Assembly: GCF_002288265.1 (NCBI RefSeq)
Contig: NZ_CP016778.1
Span: 1-64,000, forward strand
DNA from: Candidatus Planktophila versatilis
GTDB lineage: Bacteria; Actinomycetota; Actinomycetes; Nanopelagicales; Nanopelagicaceae
Direction of reading: 5' to 3'
DNA: 64,000 nucleotides
The notes beneath the pieces are model-generated. The model saw only the letters and a list, made by a program, of their open reading frames with translations. It was not told the origin of the DNA and ran no database searches. Below are positions 24,917-44,193 of this stretch, piece by piece (the first letter of the stretch is position 1; each line of letters opens with the position of its first letter). The translations under genes were made by a program, and so were the position numbers.

Positions 24917-27010
24917 ATGCCAGCTAGCCTGCCCACACCTGCTGCTCCAAAGCAGGATGCCACCCGCAGCGTCCTTGCTATCCCGGCATTTCGCAAACTC
25001 TGGAAGGCGATGGTCTTCTCTTCCTTAGGTGATTGGCTTGGTCTGCTAGCAACTACTGCCCTGGCCGCACAACTTTCTGGCGGTTCTTATGCCACCGCAA
25101 ACTTTGCTATCGCTGGTGTCTTTATTGCGCGATTGTTACCCGCAGTATTTCTTGGTCCCATTGCTGGAGTATTTGCAGATCGCTTTGATCGCCGCCGCTT
25201 GATGGTTGTCATCGACATCCTGCGCGCCGCCCTCTATATCTCTATCCCAATCGTGCACACCTACTTCTGGCTCTATGCCGCCATGATCTTGGTTGAATGT
25301 CTAACGCTCTTCTGGTCACCAGCAAAGGAAGCATCAGTACCTAATCTTGTCCCACGCGATAAGTTAGAAAATGCTAATCAGGTCTCACTCCTAGCTGCCT
25401 ATGGCACCGCACCCATTGCTGCAATTCTCTTCACACTTCTTACCTTGGTCTCAGGTGCCCTTGCAACGATTAGCCCACTGCTACCAACTAACTCAGTAGA
25501 TATCGCCCTCTACTTCAACGCTCTCTCCTTCCTCTTTGCCGCCTACACAATCCGTGGTCTAAAAGAGATTCCAAAAGGCGCCGCCTCTAAAAAAGATGCC
25601 GAGCAGAACATCGGCCAATCACTTCTACAAGGTTGGAAGGCTGTCTCGCAATCAAAGATTATTCGTGGGCTCATCATTGGCATGATTGGCGCCTTCTCAG
25701 CAGCAGGCGCCGTCATTGGCCTTGCTCGTACATTCGTAGGAGACCTTGGCGGCGGCGATGCCGCATATGGTGTGCTCTTCGGTGCGGTTTTCACTGGCCT
25801 TGCCATCGGTATTGCATTTGGTCCAAAGATATTCGCCCAGTTCTCTCGCCGTCGCTTATTTGGCGCTTCTCTTTCCACCGCCGGCTTCTTCCTTGTGTTG
25901 CTGGCACTGATTTCAAATCTCACACTTTCTGTCATCATCGTGATCTTCCTCGGTGCCTTTAGCGGCATCACCTGGGTCACCGGCTTCACCATGCTCGGCA
26001 TGGAAGTACACGATGATGTTCGAGGTCGCACCTTCGCCTTTGTGCAATCACTGATTCGCATTACCTTGGTAGCAGTTCTTGCCACCGCGCCAATCATCGC
26101 CGCCACCATTGGTGAACACAGGTATGAATTCCAGAACACCACCCTTGACTACAACGGCGCCCAGATCACTATGTTGCTCGCAGGTCTTATCGCAGCACTG
26201 ATTGGTTACATCTCCTACCGCCAGATGAAAGACCGCCCACAAGTATCGCTCTGGTCCGATATCGTCGCAGCGTTGCAAGGAGAACTTGGCGCCATCACTG
26301 GCGCCCAAACCCAGAGCATCTTCATCGCCTTTGAAGGGGGTGAAGGCACCGGCAAGTCAACCCAATCCAAGTTACTTGCTAAGTGGTTAGAACAAGAAGC
26401 TGAGACCGTGCTTCTTACAAGAGAACCCGGTGGCACCACACTCGGAAAAGATCTGCGCACCATCTTGCTCGGCCACGAAACTGGAGCAATCAGCCCACGA
26501 GCAGAGGCGCTGCTCTATGCCGCAGATCGCGCCCACCATGTTTACTCTGTTATTCGCCCAGCACTTGATCGCGGTGAAGTTGTTATCTCAGATCGCTACT
26601 TTGATTCATCGGCTGCCTACCAAGGAGCAGGAAGAGTTCTTATTCCAGGTGAGGTAGCGCGCATCTCTAGATGGGCGACAGAAAGCTTGTATCCAACACT
26701 GACAATCCTGATCGACTTGCCTGCAGAAGTTGGGCTAGCTCGCCTGCAATCACTAGATCGGTTAGAGGCAGAGCCAAAAGAATTCCACGAACGCGTGCGC
26801 CAAGAGTTCTTGCAAATCGCCATGATGGACCCAGAGCGCTACTTCGTAGTTGATGGCACCCAGTCAGTGGAGGAGATCCACAAACAAATCATTGAACGAG
26901 TAGCAGAGCTTCCAGCGCTCAAGCGCAACGCAGCTGGCCCGCAACAAAATCGTTTACTGCGCCCAGTTCGTTTTGCGACGAATGCTGTCACGCATCGGAT
27001 AAAGAAGTAA
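24917..27010 (+). CDS. tmk: Fusion of MFS-type membrane transporter and thymidylate kinase
   Basis: The 697-residue protein has two parts. Residues about 20-440 form a 12-helix major-facilitator-type domain with FADRFDRRRLMV between helices 2 and 3. Residues about 467-680 are a complete thymidylate kinase: P-loop FEGGEGTGKST near 472, the DR(Y/F) motif in SDRYFDSSAAYQGAG, and TREPGGT. The kinase converts dTMP to dTDP and is essential, and no second tmk is visible here. Membrane-attached Tmk fusions are known in some actinobacteria. What the transporter half moves is unknown. The holB gene starts directly after the stop. Confidence 0.9.
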   Translation: MPASLPTPAAPKQDATRSVLAIPAFRKLWKAMVFSSLGDWLGLLATTALAAQLSGGSYATANFAIAGVFIARLLPAVFLGPIAGVFADRFDRRRLMVVIDILRAALYISIPIVHTYFWLYAAMILVECLTLFWSPAKEASVPNLVPRDKLENANQVSLLAAYGTAPIAAILFTLLTLVSGALATISPLLPTNSVDIALYFNALSFLFAAYTIRGLKEIPKGAASKKDAEQNIGQSLLQGWKAVSQSKIIRGLIIGMIGAFSAAGAVIGLARTFVGDLGGGDAAYGVLFGAVFTGLAIGIAFGPKIFAQFSRRRLFGASLSTAGFFLVLLALISNLTLSVIIVIFLGAFSGITWVTGFTMLGMEVHDDVRGRTFAFVQSLIRITLVAVLATAPIIAATIGEHRYEFQNTTLDYNGAQITMLLAGLIAALIGYISYRQMKDRPQVSLWSDIVAALQGELGAITGAQTQSIFIAFEGGEGTGKSTQSKLLAKWLEQEAETVLLTREPGGTTLGKDLRTILLGHETGAISPRAEALLYAADRAHHVYSVIRPALDRGEVVISDRYFDSSAAYQGAGRVLIPGEVARISRWATESLYPTLTILIDLPAEVGLARLQSLDRLEAEPKEFHERVRQEFLQIAMMDPERYFVVDGTQSVEEIHKQIIERVAELPALKRNAAGPQQNRLLRPVRFATNAVTHRIKK

Positions 27011-31271: not shown

Positions 31272-32258
31272 ATGGACTACTTTGATAATAGCTCAATACT
31301 TATTACGGGTGGAACAGGCTCACTAGGAAAAAGCCTAATTGCCAAGTTATTAACTGAATCAAGCGCCCGCCGCATCGCGATTTACTCAAGAGATGAATTA
31401 AAGCAACTTCAACTAAAAGCACTTTTTGGTGACAACCCACGTCTACGCTGGTTTCTAGGTGATATTCGAGATCTTGAGCGAATGAAGCGTGCAATGCATG
31501 GCGTTGATTTTGTGATTCACGCGGCAGCACTCAAGCAAGTGGACACAGGTGAGTACAACCCTATGGAGTTTATTAAGACGAACGTTCTTGGTAGCCAGAA
31601 CGTGATTGAAGCTGCGATTGATTGCGGAGTAAAAAAGGTCGTAGCGCTCTCAACAGATAAGGCTTCTTCGCCGATTAACCTTTACGGAGCCACGAAGCTC
31701 ACAGCAGACAAGTTGTTTATAGCGGCAAACAATTATAGCCAAGGATACGGAACTGCATTTAGTGTAGTTCGATACGGAAATGTAATGGGGAGCCGCGGAT
31801 CTGTAATCCCACTCTTTCGAGATTTGTCTGACAAGAAAAAACCTTTACCGATTACAGATTTTCGGATGACCAGATTTCTGATTAGTTTAAATATGGCTTC
31901 CAATTTTGTCTTGGACTCGTTTGGGATTATGCAAGGCGGAGAGTTATACGTGCCTCGAATTCCAAGCATTAGAATTGTGGATTTAGCCAAGGCCATCAGT
32001 GGCGAGAGTGAATTGGTTGAAGTTGGAATCCGCCCCGGAGAGAAGTTACATGAGGAAATGATTTCACAGGAGGACATTAGGAGGACTATTCAAGTATCCC
32101 CCGAACGTTTAGTTGTTCTCCCAACCGTCACGGAATATAATTTCAGCATTCCTGCAGGTATTTTTATTGAGGATGAACATGCCTATGCGTCGAATACTAA
32201 CAACCTATGGATGTCTGAAGTGGATCTAAAAAAGTACATTGAAGAAATTGGGGCATGA
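31272..32258 (+). CDS. pseB: PseB/CapD-like UDP-GlcNAc 4,6-dehydratase
   Basis: This 328-residue short-chain dehydrogenase has GGTGSLGKSL near residue 11 for NADP, HAAALKQVDTGEYNPMEFI, STDKASSPINLYGATK containing the catalytic Tyr-x3-Lys, and a C-terminal VGIRPGEKLHEEMIS. This is the pattern of PseB, which converts UDP-GlcNAc to a 4-keto-6-deoxy sugar with C5 inversion. GAGGCAACC before ATG 31272 is the ribosome site; an earlier ATG adds unrelated sequence. It opens a five-gene operon with stop/start overlaps and probably performs the first step of nonulosonic acid synthesis. A CapD/WbjB-type role for another deoxysugar cannot be excluded. Confidence 0.85.
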   Translation: MDYFDNSSILITGGTGSLGKSLIAKLLTESSARRIAIYSRDELKQLQLKALFGDNPRLRWFLGDIRDLERMKRAMHGVDFVIHAAALKQVDTGEYNPMEFIKTNVLGSQNVIEAAIDCGVKKVVALSTDKASSPINLYGATKLTADKLFIAANNYSQGYGTAFSVVRYGNVMGSRGSVIPLFRDLSDKKKPLPITDFRMTRFLISLNMASNFVLDSFGIMQGGELYVPRIPSIRIVDLAKAISGESELVEVGIRPGEKLHEEMISQEDIRRTIQVSPERLVVLPTVTEYNFSIPAGIFIEDEHAYASNTNNLWMSEVDLKKYIEEIGA

Positions 32259-33106
32259 AGCTACTCGTTTTAGGAAGTAGGGGCTTCCTAGGAAGTCACT
32301 TGATGCGCGTTGCCAGCGCAGGAGATTCAAACAAATTATCAGTTACGGGAATCTCAGAAAAGTTTCGAAGTGAAATTGATATCCAAGCGCTTAACCTTGA
32401 TGGGTTTGATGTAATTGTGTATTGCGCCGCCCTCGCAAATCTTGAGGATTGCGAAGTAGATCCGGAGTATGCGTTTTGGGTGAATTCAGAAATTCCAAAG
32501 CTCCTATGTCAAAAGATTCAAGGAACAAAATCCAAGTTTGTGTATATCTCGACCGATGCGATTTTTGATGGCAGTAAGAGTTTTGTCGAAGAAAATGATT
32601 CTCCAAACCCTAAATCTGTATATGGTAAAAGTAAACTGCAAGGCGAGGTAAACGTATCGGAATTAGACGGGCGCAGCCTTATATGTCGTGTGAACTTCTT
32701 TGGAAGTAGTCCCAAAAACAACTCACTTTTTGATTATTTTTACGATAATCTGATTGATAGAAAGAAAATCATAGGTTTCTCAAACATATTCTTTACTCCG
32801 ATCTCCGTTAATACCCTATCCCGCACGATTTTGGATTTAATCATGGCAGAAGCACAAGGAATTTATCATGTGTGCGGCTCTGAACGTATTTCAAAGCTTG
32901 ATTTTGGAATCATGATTGAGAACTTAGTTTTGGGCACTTCGGGGCTTGTAGAACCTTGTCTTTTCACCCAAACGCCCACGGGCCCAGCTAGAAGTTTGGA
33001 TTTAAGTATGTCAATCAAGAAGCTGATCAATCTTGGGATATCTTTACCACCACTCAGCAGTCAATTAGTTGAAACTATTCAAAAGAGAAGGATTACATTA
33101 ACGTGA
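32255..33106 (+). CDS. RmlD-like sugar nucleotide reductase (SDR)
   Basis: The 283-residue protein has GSRGFLGSHL near residue 7 as dinucleotide motif. It also carries CAALANLEDCEVDPEYAFWVN, ISTDAIFDG and YGKSKLQGE (Tyr-x3-Lys), the pattern of dTDP-4-dehydrorhamnose reductases. RmlD-type enzymes reduce a 4-keto group of a nucleotide sugar. Placed between PseB-like and NeuB-like genes, where an aminotransferase (PseC) would be expected, it may reduce the PseB product instead. It overlaps both neighbours by four bases (ATGA before, GTGA after). The reductase class is firm; the substrate is inference. Confidence 0.78.
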   Translation: MKLLVLGSRGFLGSHLMRVASAGDSNKLSVTGISEKFRSEIDIQALNLDGFDVIVYCAALANLEDCEVDPEYAFWVNSEIPKLLCQKIQGTKSKFVYISTDAIFDGSKSFVEENDSPNPKSVYGKSKLQGEVNVSELDGRSLICRVNFFGSSPKNNSLFDYFYDNLIDRKKIIGFSNIFFTPISVNTLSRTILDLIMAEAQGIYHVCGSERISKLDFGIMIENLVLGTSGLVEPCLFTQTPTGPARSLDLSMSIKKLINLGISLPPLSSQLVETIQKRRITLT

Positions 33107-34167
33107 AATTCACCAACTCTAACTTCGACCTTTTCCCGAAAGCCACATATTTTATTGCGGATATTGCGGCTAACCATGATGGTTCACTAGATAGGGCTAA
33201 GGCGCTGATCAAACTTGCGGCGGAATCAGGAGCAAACGCTGCTAAATTCCAAAACTTTCGTGCTGAAACAATTGTATCCTCGAAGGGTTTCCAGGAGCTT
33301 GGAAAGAAACTTACCCACCAAAGCAAGTGGACTAAAGATGTAGTTGAAGTATATAAAGAGGCGGAACTTCCTTTGGAATGGACTGAGGAGTTAATCAGCA
33401 CTTGTGTGGAGTTTGGGATCGACTACTTTACTGCTCCTTACGATCTTGATTATATTGATTACTTCAGGACAAAAATGCCGGTGTTCAAAATAGGTTCAGG
33501 TGATATCACTTACCTCGAGTCTCTAAATAAAATCGCTGCGACAGGATTACCTGTTCTCTTGGCAACTGGCGCGAGTTCTCTTGAAGATGTGAAGCTTGCC
33601 GTAGAAATTTTGTCCCAGAATTCTTCTCAGATTGTGATTATGCAATGCAATACAAACTACACAGGTTCTGAGGACAATTTTAAGTATCTCAACCTTGAGG
33701 TGATTTCACAGTACAAGGAGATTTTCCCAACGTGTGGATTAGGGCTTTCAGATCACACCCCTGGGCATATTTCGGTCCTAGGCGCAGTGACACTAGGTGC
33801 AAGATTTATTGAGAAACATTTTACCGACGATAAATCAAGGCCTGGCCCAGATCATGGATTTTCTCTAGATCCTCATGATTGGAAATCGATGGTGGGCAAC
33901 ACGCGCATTCTTGAGAAATCACTTGGTGATGGATCAAAAAAGGTTGAAGATAACGAGCTTGAGGCTCAAATAGTCCAGCGGAGGGCTCTTAGATTCGTTA
34001 GCGACCTACCACGGGGCCATGTTATCTCGCAAGGGGATTTGATTGCCCTACGGCCAATCCCGGAAACCGGGATTAGTCCGATGGATGCAAGTTTGGTTTT
34101 AGGGAAAAAAATTCGAGAGCAAGTTAAAGCGGACGAACTAATAACTTTTGACAAAATAGATGATTAA
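33103..34167 (+). CDS. NeuB-family nonulosonic acid synthase
   Basis: The 354-residue protein joins a TIM-barrel synthase (about 1-275) and a C-terminal antifreeze-like SAF domain (about 290-350). It shows FIADIAANHDGSLDRAKALI near residue 17, KFQNFRAETI, FKIGSGDITYLE, LLATGASSLEDV, and SDHTPGHISVLGAVTLGA with FIEKHFTDDK. NeuB/PseI/LegI enzymes condense phosphoenolpyruvate with a hexosamine derivative to give sialic-, pseudaminic- or legionaminic-type acids. Which sugar is used cannot be told from sequence; the neighbouring PseB and PseF types suggest a pseudaminic-like product. GTG start overlaps the previous stop. Confidence 0.9.
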   Translation: MKFTNSNFDLFPKATYFIADIAANHDGSLDRAKALIKLAAESGANAAKFQNFRAETIVSSKGFQELGKKLTHQSKWTKDVVEVYKEAELPLEWTEELISTCVEFGIDYFTAPYDLDYIDYFRTKMPVFKIGSGDITYLESLNKIAATGLPVLLATGASSLEDVKLAVEILSQNSSQIVIMQCNTNYTGSEDNFKYLNLEVISQYKEIFPTCGLGLSDHTPGHISVLGAVTLGARFIEKHFTDDKSRPGPDHGFSLDPHDWKSMVGNTRILEKSLGDGSKKVEDNELEAQIVQRRALRFVSDLPRGHVISQGDLIALRPIPETGISPMDASLVLGKKIREQVKADELITFDKIDD

Positions 34168-35155
34168 AATTTTGTATCTTTCAGGGACGAGTAATCCACA
34201 CGATCTACGCATTGTTAAGGCACTAACTGAAGATTTCACTGTTGATACTCTCCTAGACTTCAACTCTAGTAGAAGAATCGCCAAGTCTTATTCCGAGACG
34301 GATTACGATTTTTTGGTTTTCTCCTCACTCGATCTAAAAATCCCTTGGAGTGAAATCAACTATAAATTCGCATACGGATTGTGTATGGCCGTAGAGATTA
34401 ACGAAGTCGGACCCCATTCAGAAGAATTCGCTGTAATTCAGTCAAATATTAAGAATTCCACCTTGGTCAATGTTGACAATGATTATGTACAAAGTGAAAT
34501 GAATAGGAAGTATGAAGTTTCATGCAACATTACTAATTTCAAGTATGGAAGTGACTTATCAGTGTTTCATGGCAGAGCTCAGAAAATTCAAAGCCCGCCT
34601 CGGATTTTATGTAACCGAAATTGGACGGCAATTCATCAAAACCAATTAGTACTGAAGGCACTTAACGCACTACACCAAGATGGAATAGCCTTTCATGGCT
34701 ATTTCTTGCAACCTCCAGATGATCAACTTGAGACGCTCAGAGAATTTGATGAACTCTTAACCTCGGGAAAAATTGAGTTTATGAATTTTCTGAGCCCTAC
34801 TGAGATGGTAAGAAAACTTAACTCAGTAGATATTTATGTGTCTGGAACTAAGAGCGATGGAACTTCTGTATCTCTATTGGAAGCAATGGCATGCCAGAAA
34901 ATAGTATTGGTGTCTAATCACCCAGCTAACTTACAAGTTATTAAGGTGGGAGTTAATGGTTTTACCTTTGAAAAAGACAAAAGTGAAGACATTTACGAGG
35001 GCTTATTGAATATTCTAGGATTAAGAAAAAGAACAATCCGTAAAATTCAAAGAAATGCGAGGCGTTATGTGTACAGACATGGAAATTGGTTAAATGAATC
35101 CCTTAAGATGAGGAATGAAATTAAGAATCAATTTTTAGCAAGTGAGGCCGTATGA
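34160..35155 (+). CDS. Glycosyltransferase, GT4-like
   Basis: The 331-residue protein has a GT-B C-terminal half. SVDIYVSGTKSDGTSVSLLEAMACQKIVLVSNHPANLQVI near residues 235-275 corresponds to the GT4 donor-binding region with the E-x-x-x-C/A-x(3)P-like block. The N-terminal acceptor half is divergent. It is embedded between nonulosonate synthase and CMP-sugar synthetase genes with overlaps of 8 and 4 nt, so it may transfer the activated acid or a neighbouring sugar; GT4 enzymes normally use nucleoside-diphosphate sugars. Confidence 0.78.
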   Translation: MIKILYLSGTSNPHDLRIVKALTEDFTVDTLLDFNSSRRIAKSYSETDYDFLVFSSLDLKIPWSEINYKFAYGLCMAVEINEVGPHSEEFAVIQSNIKNSTLVNVDNDYVQSEMNRKYEVSCNITNFKYGSDLSVFHGRAQKIQSPPRILCNRNWTAIHQNQLVLKALNALHQDGIAFHGYFLQPPDDQLETLREFDELLTSGKIEFMNFLSPTEMVRKLNSVDIYVSGTKSDGTSVSLLEAMACQKIVLVSNHPANLQVIKVGVNGFTFEKDKSEDIYEGLLNILGLRKRTIRKIQRNARRYVYRHGNWLNESLKMRNEIKNQFLASEAV

Positions 35156-35844
35156 ATTTACCAATTGCAGTAATACCTGCGCGCGGGGGGAGCAAGAGAA
35201 TCCCAAGAAAAAATATTCGTGATTTCTCTGGGCTACCAGCGATTTCGTATGCAATTACTGCGGCCAGAGAATCTCAAATATTTTCCGAAGTTATAGTCAC
35301 CACTGATAATGAAGAGATTGAAGGCATCTCACGAGAGTTTGGTGCGACGATCGTAATCAAAAGACCAAGTAATTTAGCTGATGACATTACCCCTACTGTT
35401 CCAGTAGTGGCTCACGCTGTTGAGAGTTATTTGAAGGACCACAATACCAATTTGCTGGAAGTGTGTTGTATTTATCCAATCAATCCATTTCTGGAGATCT
35501 CTGACCTAAAAAGCGGGCTTGAAATTCTTCGCGCGAATCCGCAAGTTTCATATGTAAATGCAGTATGTTCCTATCCATATCCAATTCAACGAGCAGTAAC
35601 GGTGACGGACGGCTGGGTTAATATGATTAATCCCCAAAATGCATTAACAAGAAGTCAGGACCTTGAAGAAACTTACCATGATGCAGGGCAGTGGTATTGG
35701 GGAAAATCAGATACTTGGCTACGGCAAGATAAACTGCTTTTCAATTCGAAGGCATTTACCGTCCCACGATGGCGCTGCCAAGATATTGATACCGAAGAAG
35801 ATTGGAAATGCGCCGAGCTTCTTTTTAAGGCATCCAAGAAATAG
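35152..35844 (+). CDS. CMP-nonulosonate cytidylyltransferase (PseF/NeuA family)
   Basis: The 230-residue enzyme begins with the NeuA-type CTP-binding motif AVIPARGGSKRIPRKNIRD (residues 6-24), followed by FSEVIVTTDNEEIEGI and ITPTVPVVAHAVESYL. It activates a nonulosonic acid with CTP before transfer. Length and the DAGQWYWG segment favour the PseF branch (pseudaminic acid cytidylyltransferase); NeuA/LegF remain possible. ATG overlaps the preceding stop. It closes the five-gene operon. Confidence 0.88.
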   Translation: MNLPIAVIPARGGSKRIPRKNIRDFSGLPAISYAITAARESQIFSEVIVTTDNEEIEGISREFGATIVIKRPSNLADDITPTVPVVAHAVESYLKDHNTNLLEVCCIYPINPFLEISDLKSGLEILRANPQVSYVNAVCSYPYPIQRAVTVTDGWVNMINPQNALTRSQDLEETYHDAGQWYWGKSDTWLRQDKLLFNSKAFTVPRWRCQDIDTEEDWKCAELLFKASKK

Positions 35845-35963: not shown

Positions 35964-37340
35964 ATGCACAATCGTGTGGTGAAAATACAGTGGTACCGAA
36001 GTGCAACCGTAGGAATTTTTTCCGATTCTGGAAACAGCATACTGTGTGATCCCTGGATGACAGATGGCGCTTTTATTGGCTCTTGGTACCATTGGCCCCC
36101 GCTTGAAGGATTTGAATTTGACTTCTTGGTCTCGAAAAATTGGGATGCAATTTATATCTCACACTTTCATGCTGATCACTTTGACAGGAAGTTACTAGCT
36201 GCAATTATTCGCAATAACGCAGTTGTCAAAGTACTGATCCCGGAGTATTCAAATAAGTGGTTAAGAAGAGCCGTACTAAATTGCGGAGTAACCCCCAATA
36301 ACTTAATCGAAATCCCTAATAACAAATCTGTACAGTTTAAAGATTTCAGCATTAGGATGTTTGTTGCCGATTACTGCAACCCACAGATGTGTGGAGCCTC
36401 AATTTCATGCGTCTCATCACCAAGGAAGCAGAGTGCTAATGATTCGGTGGCACTGTTTGAAGCCGATGGGCAAAGAATCCTTAATGCAAACGACGCTCTA
36501 GCTGTGCAAAGTGCCCAAAGACTATGGCCCGTTGTCGGGGAAGTTGATCTTCTATTGGGACATTTCGGCGGGGCAGGACCGTTTCCACAGTGTTTTGCGG
36601 ACTTGAACAAATTGGAAAAACTGGAAAATGCAAGGGAAATGGGGCAGACATTTGTCGGTCGACTTATTGAAACAGCCGGACGTCTGAATGCGAAATTTAC
36701 GATGCCGTATGCGGGGCAATATGTTTTGGGTGGAAGTTTGACAGAACTCAACGAGTACAGGTCTGTCATACCGCTAAGTCAAGTTTTAAGCTGTATTGCT
36801 GATTCGGGTGTGACAACACCTGTCTCAATGCTTCCTTTTGGTGAATTCAATCTAACCCAAAGCTCACTAAGTGAAGAGTGGCGAGAACCACCTGCATCAA
36901 TTCAAGAAGCGTATTTAGAGAAAATTAAGAAAGTATTGTTTCCATACCAAAAGTTTGAGGAAGATTGGCCAGGGGCAAAAGTTTCACTCAATCGGGCGCT
37001 TCAAAGAGTGAAGAATGAGTTTGATGCTTACGTAGAGGAGGGAGGATCAGGGTCTATTTCCTCTATCACTATAATGACAGAAGGTGTTAGCAAAACAATC
37101 AATTTTGGTCTAGGCCAAAGCACGTTATCGGAAAGTCCTCAGTACGAGAATCACTCGACAATCCAGTTGGATTCAAGGCTCCTGAAGCGCCTTCTCATCA
37201 GAAAGGCTGGGTATCAGGGATTCACGCAATATCACTTTAATCAAGCAGAGATTGGAAGCCATTTGACGTGGTCTCGCAAAGGCCCCTATCCCAGTGAAAC
37301 GCAGTTCTTGAATTTCTTGCAAGATATCGCCCAGTCATAG
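35964..37340 (+). CDS. CMP-Neu5Ac hydroxylase-like metallo-beta-lactamase-fold protein without Rieske domain
   Basis: The 458-residue protein carries the metal-binding motif IYISHFHADHFD near residue 70. It matches, in order, blocks remembered from animal CMAH: ILCDPWMTDGAF with a nearby Trp, IYISHFHADH, GQRILNANDA, LLLGHFGGAGPFP and FTMPYAGQYVLGG. CMAH hydroxylates CMP-Neu5Ac to CMP-Neu5Gc but needs an N-terminal Rieske 2Fe-2S domain, which is absent here: the match starts at about residue 5. The gene lies 119 nt after a CMP-nonulosonate synthetase. It probably acts on the same CMP-sugar, as hydrolase or with a separate redox partner. The fold is firm; the reaction is not known. Confidence 0.75.
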   Translation: MHNRVVKIQWYRSATVGIFSDSGNSILCDPWMTDGAFIGSWYHWPPLEGFEFDFLVSKNWDAIYISHFHADHFDRKLLAAIIRNNAVVKVLIPEYSNKWLRRAVLNCGVTPNNLIEIPNNKSVQFKDFSIRMFVADYCNPQMCGASISCVSSPRKQSANDSVALFEADGQRILNANDALAVQSAQRLWPVVGEVDLLLGHFGGAGPFPQCFADLNKLEKLENAREMGQTFVGRLIETAGRLNAKFTMPYAGQYVLGGSLTELNEYRSVIPLSQVLSCIADSGVTTPVSMLPFGEFNLTQSSLSEEWREPPASIQEAYLEKIKKVLFPYQKFEEDWPGAKVSLNRALQRVKNEFDAYVEEGGSGSISSITIMTEGVSKTINFGLGQSTLSESPQYENHSTIQLDSRLLKRLLIRKAGYQGFTQYHFNQAEIGSHLTWSRKGPYPSETQFLNFLQDIAQS

Positions 37341-42129: not shown

Positions 42130-44193
42130 ATGCTGCAATTATTCAAATCTAAATCCTTCAGATATTCCGCTGCATTCTTTTTACCGACAGTGGCCATAGT
42201 AAGTAATTCACAGAGCCTCACACTCCACAATTCAAAGTCTTTCGAGACAGTTGAAAGTCTATTTATGTTCTCAATCGCTTTATGTCTAGTTTTCTTAGGA
42301 ACAATTTTTAGGGGGTTAAGAACTCGAGAAATGTTAATGACAGCCGCCGAGACTAAGTTAAGTTTGAATATTTTTGCGTACGTCATCTCGTCAGCGATAA
42401 ATATGATTACCCCCTTCAGATTGGGGGAGGTTATGCGAATTCTCTACCTAAGACGAGTCACAAAAGTTTCAGGTTATTACATTGCGCTAGTCGTTGTTAT
42501 CGAGAGAACAATTGATTTGATCCTGATTACCCTAGTAAGCCTTTTAATGCTAAATACTTCAGAATCCCAAAAACATTTTATCGCACTAATAATCGGATGC
42601 TTCTCGGTTATTCTGTTTATCTTAATCTCCCTCATGGTGAGGCCACTCCTGAGAATGATCTCCTCAATCACTTCAAATTTGAGCGAGGATTTACAATGGA
42701 AAACTAAACATTCGCTCTGGGTGGCCATGTATGGATTCAAGAAGTTCGTTTCTTCGCCACGGAGTATTTTGCTGTACATGGGATATACGTTAGTTTCATG
42801 GACATTTTATTTTGGTGGTGTCTGGATAAGTTTCAGAAGTATTCTCAATAATCAATTTGAGATTAGTCAAATCGTTGCTCCATTTACCGATTACCTAACG
42901 CTTGCCAAGCAATCCATCCACAATTTTGAACGTCATTTCTTGAACATTGGATTGAACCTAAGTAGTGAGAACATCACCGAACTGAGTTTAGTGGCGTGGG
43001 TAGTGCTAAATTTACCAATTCTAGTTATTGCCCTTACATCACTCATTTGGTTCAAACGAATTACGAGAGTAAAAAATGAAACAGACTCACTGCTTTCGAA
43101 ATTCTCGATGTTCGACTCTGACTCAAGAAACATTGTTGACTACTACATTAGCTCGGATCCAACATTAAGAAAATTGCACGAGTTGGAATTCAAAGAGAAT
43201 TTTCAAATATTAAAAATATACAAGGGTGGAAGCCAAGCCCTAACTTGTGTCGTTAAGCAAGAAGGTGGCGTACTAGAAGTATTGAAATCGACTTCTTCAT
43301 TGAACGAAGAAAAACTCAAAATGCAATATCTTTGGTTAGTCAAATTCAAGTCACACCCAGAGATAGTTTCCGTGTATAAAGAACTGAGAAATTCACATGT
43401 TTACGGGTATTCGATGCAACTAGCTGATGATTTTGTGCCATTTTACGATTTTATTCACTTAGAGGCACTCTCCAAAAGCGAAGAAATACTGAGAAATATT
43501 CATGTTTTTTTAAGAGACCATATCTACGTTGAGCTAGTGCAAAACTCAGACGAGAGTGTTTACGCGACTTATTTCGAGAAGCGGATCATCGATGCTGTTC
43601 AAAATGCTAAGTCAAGCGACAGGCAATTCTCTTTATTGTGGGACAAAACCGAAATTGTGATAAATGGAGAATTGCGTATCAACGCGAATGTGATTCTCAA
43701 GCAAAACCGGGAACATATCGAGAGAGCAATGAGAAATTTCACGAGATCTGAAAATATCCACGGAGATCTCACGGTTGACAACATTTTAATTGATCCAGTC
43801 AGTAACAAATTTCTTCTAATTGACCCTTCGGACGATAATACATTGCGCGGGCCTGTTCTTGATTTTGCGCGCTTACTTCAATCTTTAGAAGGAGGTTATG
43901 AATTTCTAAACCATTCCAACGAGAAACCAAGATACGAGCTAAGCGACACGCCTACAATAACATTTGTTGACCAACGAACACATAGGTATGAACAGTTGGC
44001 TGAAAGCGTGAGGGATTTGGCCAAGAGCTATCTAACAGAGTCTGAGAATGAAAATTTGGATTTACACATTGGATTACTCTATTTGCGAATGCTCCCTCAT
44101 CAAATCAGGATAAATCCCGAAAGAACTTTGATTTACTATCTAAAGGCGGTTGAGTTCTTAAATAGATGGCATGTTAATTTGGAAATGAGGTAG
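42130..44193 (+). CDS. Fusion: flippase-like (LPG-synthase TM/UPF0104) membrane domain plus APH-fold kinase
   Basis: The 687-residue protein has eight or so membrane segments over residues 1-320, with LSLNIFAYVISSAINMITPFRLGEVMRILYLRR at about 75-107, the hallmark of the UPF0104/AglD/LPG-synthase membrane family. Residues about 350-687 form an aminoglycoside-phosphotransferase/choline-kinase-like domain: LEVLKST with the ATP Lys, and ENIHGDLTVDNILI (catalytic HGDxxxxN) followed by FLLIDPSDD (metal-binding Asp). The kinase probably phosphorylates a small molecule or sugar. The next gene is a nucleotidyltransferase that could activate the product. Natural substrate unknown. Confidence 0.8.
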   Translation: MLQLFKSKSFRYSAAFFLPTVAIVSNSQSLTLHNSKSFETVESLFMFSIALCLVFLGTIFRGLRTREMLMTAAETKLSLNIFAYVISSAINMITPFRLGEVMRILYLRRVTKVSGYYIALVVVIERTIDLILITLVSLLMLNTSESQKHFIALIIGCFSVILFILISLMVRPLLRMISSITSNLSEDLQWKTKHSLWVAMYGFKKFVSSPRSILLYMGYTLVSWTFYFGGVWISFRSILNNQFEISQIVAPFTDYLTLAKQSIHNFERHFLNIGLNLSSENITELSLVAWVVLNLPILVIALTSLIWFKRITRVKNETDSLLSKFSMFDSDSRNIVDYYISSDPTLRKLHELEFKENFQILKIYKGGSQALTCVVKQEGGVLEVLKSTSSLNEEKLKMQYLWLVKFKSHPEIVSVYKELRNSHVYGYSMQLADDFVPFYDFIHLEALSKSEEILRNIHVFLRDHIYVELVQNSDESVYATYFEKRIIDAVQNAKSSDRQFSLLWDKTEIVINGELRINANVILKQNREHIERAMRNFTRSENIHGDLTVDNILIDPVSNKFLLIDPSDDNTLRGPVLDFARLLQSLEGGYEFLNHSNEKPRYELSDTPTITFVDQRTHRYEQLAESVRDLAKSYLTESENENLDLHIGLLYLRMLPHQIRINPERTLIYYLKAVEFLNRWHVNLEMR

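What the first reader, a model, noticed from the sequence alone, without database searches (positions are those of the whole stretch)
35964..37340. CMAH-like enzyme without its Rieske domain next to a CMP-nonulosonate synthetase
The protein matches, in order, the conserved blocks I recall from animal CMP-Neu5Ac hydroxylase (DPW...GAF, IYISHxHxDH, ILNxxD, FGGA..FP, CPFAGxFV-like MPYAGQYV) but has no N-terminal 2Fe-2S domain. It directly follows the nonulosonate operon. It may be a bacterial enzyme that modifies a CMP-activated sialic-acid-like sugar by a different chemistry or with a separate electron carrier. The motif order is seen; the homology is from memory; the reaction is inference.
Basis: partly seen in the sequence, partly recalled or inferred. 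Interest (0 to 1): 0.78.

Follow-up and report, generated by a model that had tools for sequence, protein, structure and literature searches.

The report
Rieske-less CMAH/NamH-type enzyme, sialic-acid-like pathway
A freshwater-type actinobacterium carries, beside its genes for a sialic-acid-like sugar, a metal enzyme from the same family as the animal sialic-acid hydroxylase and a mycobacterial cell-wall sugar hydroxylase but without their electron-carrying iron-sulphur domain, and the same trimmed enzyme turns up almost only in microbes and phages that make such sugars.

Summary
It is a full-length member of the superfamily of CMAH and NamH (Rv3818, UDP-MurNAc hydroxylase: MBL, SCP2-like, C-terminal Rieske). 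A profile of Rieske-less relatives scores NamH-type proteins at 118-140 bits, recalled mouse CMAH at 90 and UlaG at 9.5. All six shared candidate metal ligands are kept (H67, H69, D71, H72, D160, D177), and the hydrolase motif-5 His is replaced by P-x-A-G. Co-occurrence with nonulosonate synthesis is strong: 16 of 17 genomes with a Rieske-less relative carry NeuB, against 0 of 18 NamH genomes. In the order all three carriers are NeuB-positive, against 19/296 overall. In two phage lineages the gene sits directly behind neuB. The window clade shares an invariant D-x-C-x-P-x2-C-G-x4-C insertion with haloarchaeal plasmid relatives. Best explanation: an iron-dependent hydroxylase, fed by a separate electron donor, acting on the N-acyl group of an activated nonulosonate or its precursor. 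The chemistry is inferred, not shown; a hydrolase is the main rival. It does not replace the missing PseG. New variant of a known kind.

The parts
35964..37340 (+). Rieske-less CMAH/NamH-superfamily protein (458 aa): MBL domain plus C-terminal SCP2-like-position domain
36048..36056 (+). D29-P30-W31 block, invariant in all relatives and in recalled CMAH
36162..36179 (+). H67-x-H69-x-D71-H72 metal-binding motif
   Evidence: Pfam Lactamase_B_3
36369..36410 (+). D136-x-C138-x-P140-x2-C143-G144-x4-C149 insertion, invariant in the window clade and haloarchaeal clade (9 sequences), absent in NamH, CMAH and other Rieske-less clades; candidate metal, Fe-S or disulphide site
   Evidence: AF2 pLDDT <50 at 137-151
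36441..36443 (+). D160, invariant acidic residue, candidate metal ligand shared with NamH and CMAH
36483..36494 (+). N174-A-N176-D177 (ILNxxD block), D177 = MBL motif-4 Asp
36573..36593 (+). A204-GPFP-Q-C210 block (FGGA..FP)
36705..36716 (+). P248-Y-A250-G251, at the place where UlaG has PFHH (hydrolase motif-5 His)
37212..37322 (+). C-terminal block (GYQGFTQYHFNQAEIGSH...LNFL), colinear with the SCP2-like domain end of NamH and with WDDLYIG...RDPDVY of recalled CMAH
   Evidence: (P 0.001 each)
31272..32258 (+). pseB, UDP-GlcNAc 4,6-dehydratase (TIGR03589 448 bits)
32255..33106 (+). RmlD-like 4-keto reductase in place of the PseC aminotransferase
33103..34167 (+). NeuB/PseI-type nonulosonate synthase
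34160..35155 (+). GT4-like (GT-B fold) protein, glycosyltransferase or possible UDP-sugar hydrolase
   Evidence: same order in L127
35152..35844 (+). pseF, CMP-nonulosonate synthetase (TIGR03584 271 bits, over cut-off)

Best explanation
It is a Rieske-less branch member of the CMAH/NamH superfamily that tailors a nonulosonic acid. Upstream genes make the sugar: PseB dehydrates UDP-GlcNAc, the RmlD-like reductase reduces the 4-keto group, NeuB condenses the freed sugar with PEP, PseF makes the CMP form (inferred from families). That product should keep one N-acetyl group, at C5, the group CMAH oxidises in CMP-Neu5Ac. The MBL domain holds iron on H67, H69, D71, H72, D160 and D177 and hydroxylates the N-acyl group of the CMP-sugar, or of a UDP precursor as NamH does, giving an N-glycolyl or similarly hydroxylated nonulosonate. 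Electrons come from a separate carrier (the genome has five Rieske-domain proteins elsewhere) or through the three-Cys insertion beside the active site. Shown: superfamily membership, missing Rieske, conserved ligand set, co-occurrence with NeuB. Inferred: metal, O2 chemistry, substrate and electron route.
For: Homology: Rieske-less profile against NamH-type 118-140 bits and recalled mouse CMAH 89.8 bits, UlaG 9.5; hhalign to recalled CMAH 99.4% over 394 columns against UlaG 70% over 194. NamH identity: Pfam SCP2_Rv3818 plus Rieske on L053 and L066; NamH = UlaG domain + C-terminal Rieske (PMC10050696). 18 of 24 family-conserved columns are shared by recalled CMAH, including all six candidate ligands; motif-5 His is lost. 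Pathway: NeuB in 16/17 genomes of Rieske-less relatives, 0/18 NamH genomes; 3/3 carriers in the order NeuB+ against 19/296 (p 2e-4); nonulosonate genes in the flanks of 8/17 loci against none of the control loci; operon PseB-PseC-SpsF-CMAH-like in L045; phage L134 NeuB end overlaps the CMAH-like start. Oxygenase precedent without Rieske: FrsH and CmlA diiron monooxygenases are among the best solved-structure sequence hits (PMC7794379, PMC7785958). Most carriers belong to aerobic lineages (general knowledge).
Against: No biochemical evidence. Foldseek ranks UlaG-type lactonase folds slightly above CmlA/FrsH, and SaxA hydrolase scores as well as FrsH with the Rieske-less-only profile. A relative occurs in a Harrisonbacteria genome, a lineage expected to be anaerobic. 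No redox partner gene lies beside the gene. NeuB background is high in some taxa (9/14 control genomes). Literature says loss of the Rieske domain erases animal CMAH activity (PMC8227644).
Confidence: 0.5

Rival explanations
1. A hydrolase of the nonulosonate pathway: the UlaG-like MBL fold kept hydrolytic chemistry (N-deacylase, lactonase, phosphodiesterase or editing hydrolase on the CMP- or UDP-sugar), and the Rieske domain was only ever added in the NamH and CMAH lines.
For: Foldseek top hits are UlaG-type; SaxA and NAPE-PLD appear in profile searches; no redox partner nearby; a member in a probably anaerobic CPR bacterium.
Against: The family lacks motif-5 His (P-x-A-G instead) and has an acidic 3-His/3-Asp set shared with the oxygenases NamH and CMAH; UlaG scores far below CMAH and NamH.
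Confidence: 0.3
2. It replaces PseG/NeuC as the UDP-sugar hydrolase, which this complete genome lacks.
For: No PseG and no Epimerase_2/NeuC in the 1.33-Mb single-contig genome.
Against: PseG or PseG-like genes coexist with the CMAH-like gene in L043, L046, L047, L058 and G124; G126, G135, G255 and G256 have NeuB, no PseG and no CMAH-like gene; the window-type PseB-RmlD-NeuB-GT4 order exists without it in G256.
Confidence: 0.06
3. Generic glycan-island enzyme acting on some other amino sugar; the NeuB link is mostly shared habitat in surface-glycan islands.
For: Haloarchaeal relatives lie in glycan islands near glmS/glmU/glmM without NeuB in the flanks; L036-L039 have no sugar genes beside them.
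Against: L036-L039 genomes all carry NeuB elsewhere; phage NeuB/CMAH-like cassettes; 3/3 carriers in the order NeuB+.
Confidence: 0.12

Closest known systems
NamH (Rv3818, UDP-N-acetylmuramic acid hydroxylase)
   Same: MBL domain with all candidate ligands, C-terminal SCP2-like-position domain, bacterial, acts on a nucleotide-activated N-acetyl sugar; 118-140 bits to the Rieske-less profile
   Different: The window protein lacks the C-terminal Rieske domain, does not hit Pfam SCP2_Rv3818, carries a three-Cys insertion, and sits in a nonulosonate context; NamH genomes examined have no NeuB
CMAH (animal CMP-Neu5Ac hydroxylase)
   Same: All reader-listed blocks and 18/24 conserved columns, colinear C-terminal block; CMP-nonulosonate context
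   Different: No N-terminal Rieske domain; 25% identity over the best segment; CMAH sequence recalled, not fetched
CmlA / FrsH diiron beta-hydroxylases
   Same: MBL-fold oxygenases without Rieske domain, significant profile hits
   Different: Different N-terminal region and substrate (carrier-bound amino acids); remote similarity
UlaG L-ascorbate-6-phosphate lactonase
   Same: MBL fold, HxHxDH, best Foldseek matches (2wym, 3bv6)
   Different: Weak sequence match (9.5 bits), keeps a His where the family has P-x-A-G, no C-terminal domain match

Membership tests
CMAH/NamH superfamily (MBL + C-terminal domain) | Conserved blocks DPW, HxHxDH, D160, D177, A-x3-P, P-x-A-G | tested here: met
CMAH/NamH superfamily (MBL + C-terminal domain) | Profile similarity well above other MBL families | tested here: met
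CMAH (CMP-Neu5Ac hydroxylase proper) | N-terminal Rieske [2Fe-2S] domain | tested here: not met
   Pfam scan, motif search
CMAH (CMP-Neu5Ac hydroxylase proper) | Hydroxylation of CMP-Neu5Ac with cytochrome b5 | not testable with these tools
   needs biochemistry
NamH | C-terminal Rieske domain | tested here: not met
   present in the NamH-type proteins
NamH | Pfam SCP2_Rv3818 domain | tested here: inconclusive
   no Pfam hit, but colinear weak profile match P 0.001
UlaG / hydrolytic MBL | Motif-5 His at the end of the fold | tested here: not met
   P-Y-A-G instead of PFHH
CmlA-type diiron oxygenase | Bound diiron centre | not testable with these tools
   ligand set plausible; metal not measured
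Nonulosonate-pathway gene | Co-occurrence with NeuB | tested here: met

The most novel reading that the evidence does not exclude
Rieske-less CMAH/NamH-type enzymes form a widespread bacterial, archaeal and phage family that hydroxylates nonulosonic acids, so microbes do make N-glycolyl-type or otherwise hydroxylated sialic-acid-like sugars; the Rieske domain was fused later and independently at opposite ends in CMAH and NamH; and the window/haloarchaeal branch uses its own three-Cys site for electron delivery or metal binding.
Probability: 0.3. Interest if true: 0.82.

Novelty: new variant of a known kind. Interest (0 to 1): 0.64.

Why it matters
A review states that known microbes cannot make Neu5Gc (PMC6481270), and CMAH had no reported structure and an unexplained mechanism (PMC4819959). 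A stand-alone MBL core that tracks NeuB across phyla gives a small test system for how this fold might activate oxygen, a candidate gene for unrecognised nonulosonate variants on aquatic bacteria and phages, and a route to the origin of animal CMAH by Rieske fusion.

Tried and rejected
PseG replacement was rejected from co-occurrence. UlaG membership was rejected on sequence and motif-5 grounds. A neighbouring ferredoxin or Rieske gene was sought and not found. Peri et al. 2018 on CMAH distribution is not held. The deep tree leaves CMAH on a very long branch, so no claim is made on which clade it joins. Viral scans with A1 and L041 found nothing. BFVD fold search gave only generic MBL matches. 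Three weak Polynucleobacter hits (L144-L146) were not counted as members.

Full report
Observation. The ORF at 35964-37340 on the + strand encodes 458 aa and is intact. Pfam gives only Lactamase_B_3 (1.3e-5) above its cut-off and NCBIfam only sub-threshold UlaG (7.6e-6); no Rieske domain appears at E up to 10. Upstream lie PseB, an RmlD-like reductase, a NeuB-type synthase, a GT4-like protein and PseF, overlapping end to end; the gene follows after 119 bp. The window is a 64-kb stretch of a 1.33-Mb single-contig genome, 100% complete. Relatives in the same family and order carry titles from Nanopelagicales and actinobacteria, so this is most likely a freshwater Nanopelagicales genome (inference).

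Relatives. In the order, 3 of 296 genomes carry the gene. A scan of 84,980 species found 62 loci. Fifteen Rieske-less relatives were extracted at 416-453 aa, two more are short or cut off (L047, L058), and the actinobacterial relatives read in full at 516-529 aa carry a Rieske domain at the C-terminus. Two of the latter were scanned and hit Pfam SCP2_Rv3818 and Rieske, which identifies them as NamH, the UDP-MurNAc hydroxylase; NamH is described as an N-terminal UlaG and a C-terminal Rieske domain (PMC10050696), and CMAH as a distant homologue of the prokaryotic N-glycolylmuramic genes (PMC6481270). Haloarchaeal plasmids and three distinct phage contigs also carry Rieske-less forms.

Is it CMAH-like? 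A profile of 16 Rieske-less proteins scores NamH-type proteins at 118-140 bits and mouse CMAH at 89.8 bits, with no shuffled CMAH in the hit list; E. coli UlaG scores 9.5 bits. hhalign aligns 394 columns with CMAH at 99.4% and 194 with UlaG at 70%. Of 24 columns conserved in at least 90% of relatives, 18 agree with CMAH, including H67, H69, D71, H72, D160 and D177. Where UlaG has PFHH the whole family has P-x-A-G or a close variant, so the usual motif-5 His is missing. The C-terminal block also aligns with NamH and CMAH, weakly in isolation (P about 0.001).

Structure. The AlphaFold2 model of the window protein is good (pLDDT 84, pTM 0.85). Foldseek gives UlaG-type structures first (E 4e-12), then CmlA and FrsH diiron hydroxylases (1e-10) and NAPE-PLD. 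No CMAH or NamH chain appeared in the solved-structure searches, and a 2016 review states that no CMAH structure had been reported (PMC4819959). Sequence profiles place FrsH first when NamH members are included or for the Cys clade alone, but SaxA hydrolase is equal or better with the Rieske-less-only set. The fold alone therefore does not decide the chemistry. A model of a NamH-type protein was also made (pLDDT 83) but coordinates could not be inspected, so ligand geometry was not measured in either model.

Context. In the flanks of 17 Rieske-less loci, 8 hold nonulosonate genes, against none around the control loci, with family assignments over or near cut-off for PseB, PseC, PseG, PseI and NeuB. 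At genome level NeuB is present in 16 of 17 Rieske-less genomes and 0 of 18 NamH genomes. The background is 6% in the order, 26% in the genus of the Polynucleobacter locus and 9 of 14 in the named control genomes; even at the last rate, 16 or more of 17 has a probability of about 0.006 (own arithmetic). The two genome groups differ in phylogeny, so the 0/18 contrast is not a controlled one. All three carriers in the order are NeuB-positive (p 2e-4), and in G124 a Pse-type cluster (PseG-like, PseB, PseC-like, NeuB/PseI, PseF) lies within about 16 kb. Two phage contigs with terminase and portal genes have neuB directly upstream, in L134 overlapping by one base. Phage-encoded nonulosonate tailoring has a precedent in EpaA-EpaB (PMC12053666).

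The Cys insertion. The four window-clade members and the five haloarchaeal proteins read here share D-x-C-x-P-x2-C-G-x4-C at residues 136-149, at about 26-40% overall identity to the window protein. It is absent from NamH, CMAH and the other Rieske-less clades. It sits next to the MBL motif-3 position, in the least confident part of the model. It could bind a metal or Fe-S cluster standing in for the Rieske centre, or be structural; nothing here decides that.

Mechanism. The most likely reading is an iron-dependent hydroxylase with an external electron donor, because the ligand set is acidic and shared with two known N-acetyl hydroxylases, and because MBL-fold oxygenases without a Rieske domain exist (CmlA, FrsH; PMC7785958, PMC7794379). 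The predicted product of PseB, RmlD-like, NeuB and PseF keeps one N-acetyl group, at C5, the place CMAH oxidises. Whether the substrate is the CMP-sugar or an earlier UDP-sugar is open; haloarchaeal relatives near glmS, glmU and glmM fit UDP-sugars. A hydrolase remains a serious rival. PseG replacement is unlikely, since several loci hold both genes and several NeuB-positive genomes hold neither.

Evolution. Rieske domains sit at opposite ends in CMAH and NamH while Rieske-less forms span several deep clades. Independent fusion onto a Rieske-less core is the simplest reading, but the root and the CMAH branch are unresolved.

Verdict. Real, well-supported family and pathway link, unproven reaction. 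New variant of a known kind; interest 0.64.

Noticed in passing
31272-35844 and L127:7409-11315: PseB, RmlD-like reductase, NeuB and GT4-like operon without PseC, PseG or NeuC in a complete genome; the same gene order occurs in G256. It suggests a 7-hydroxy, 9-deoxy nonulosonate and a GT-B-fold protein as possible UDP-sugar hydrolase.
   Followed up: partly
L132:6602-9212, L134:2725-9227: Tailed-phage contigs encode NeuB directly followed by a CMAH-like gene; L134 also has a PseB-like SDR, SpsF, a class-III aminotransferase and a GNAT gene.
   Followed up: partly
36369-36410; L103-L107: Three-Cys insertion D-x-C-x-P-x2-C-G-x4-C shared by Nanopelagicales and haloarchaeal plasmid proteins.
   Followed up: partly
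L103, L105, L108: Haloarchaeal plasmid CMAH-like genes lie in glycan islands near glmS, glmU and glmM.
   Followed up: no
24917-27010: One ORF appears to fuse an MFS-type transporter with a thymidylate kinase; a similar ORF appears in related genomes.
   Followed up: no
42130-44193: A 687-aa ORF looks like a membrane (LPG-synthase/flippase-like) domain fused to a kinase-like domain in the glycan island.
   Followed up: no
L145:1465-2856: Polynucleobacter protein with a related but distinct Rieske-less MBL architecture (DPW, HEHPDH, NINDC), possibly a further family in the neighbourhood of CMAH.
   Followed up: no
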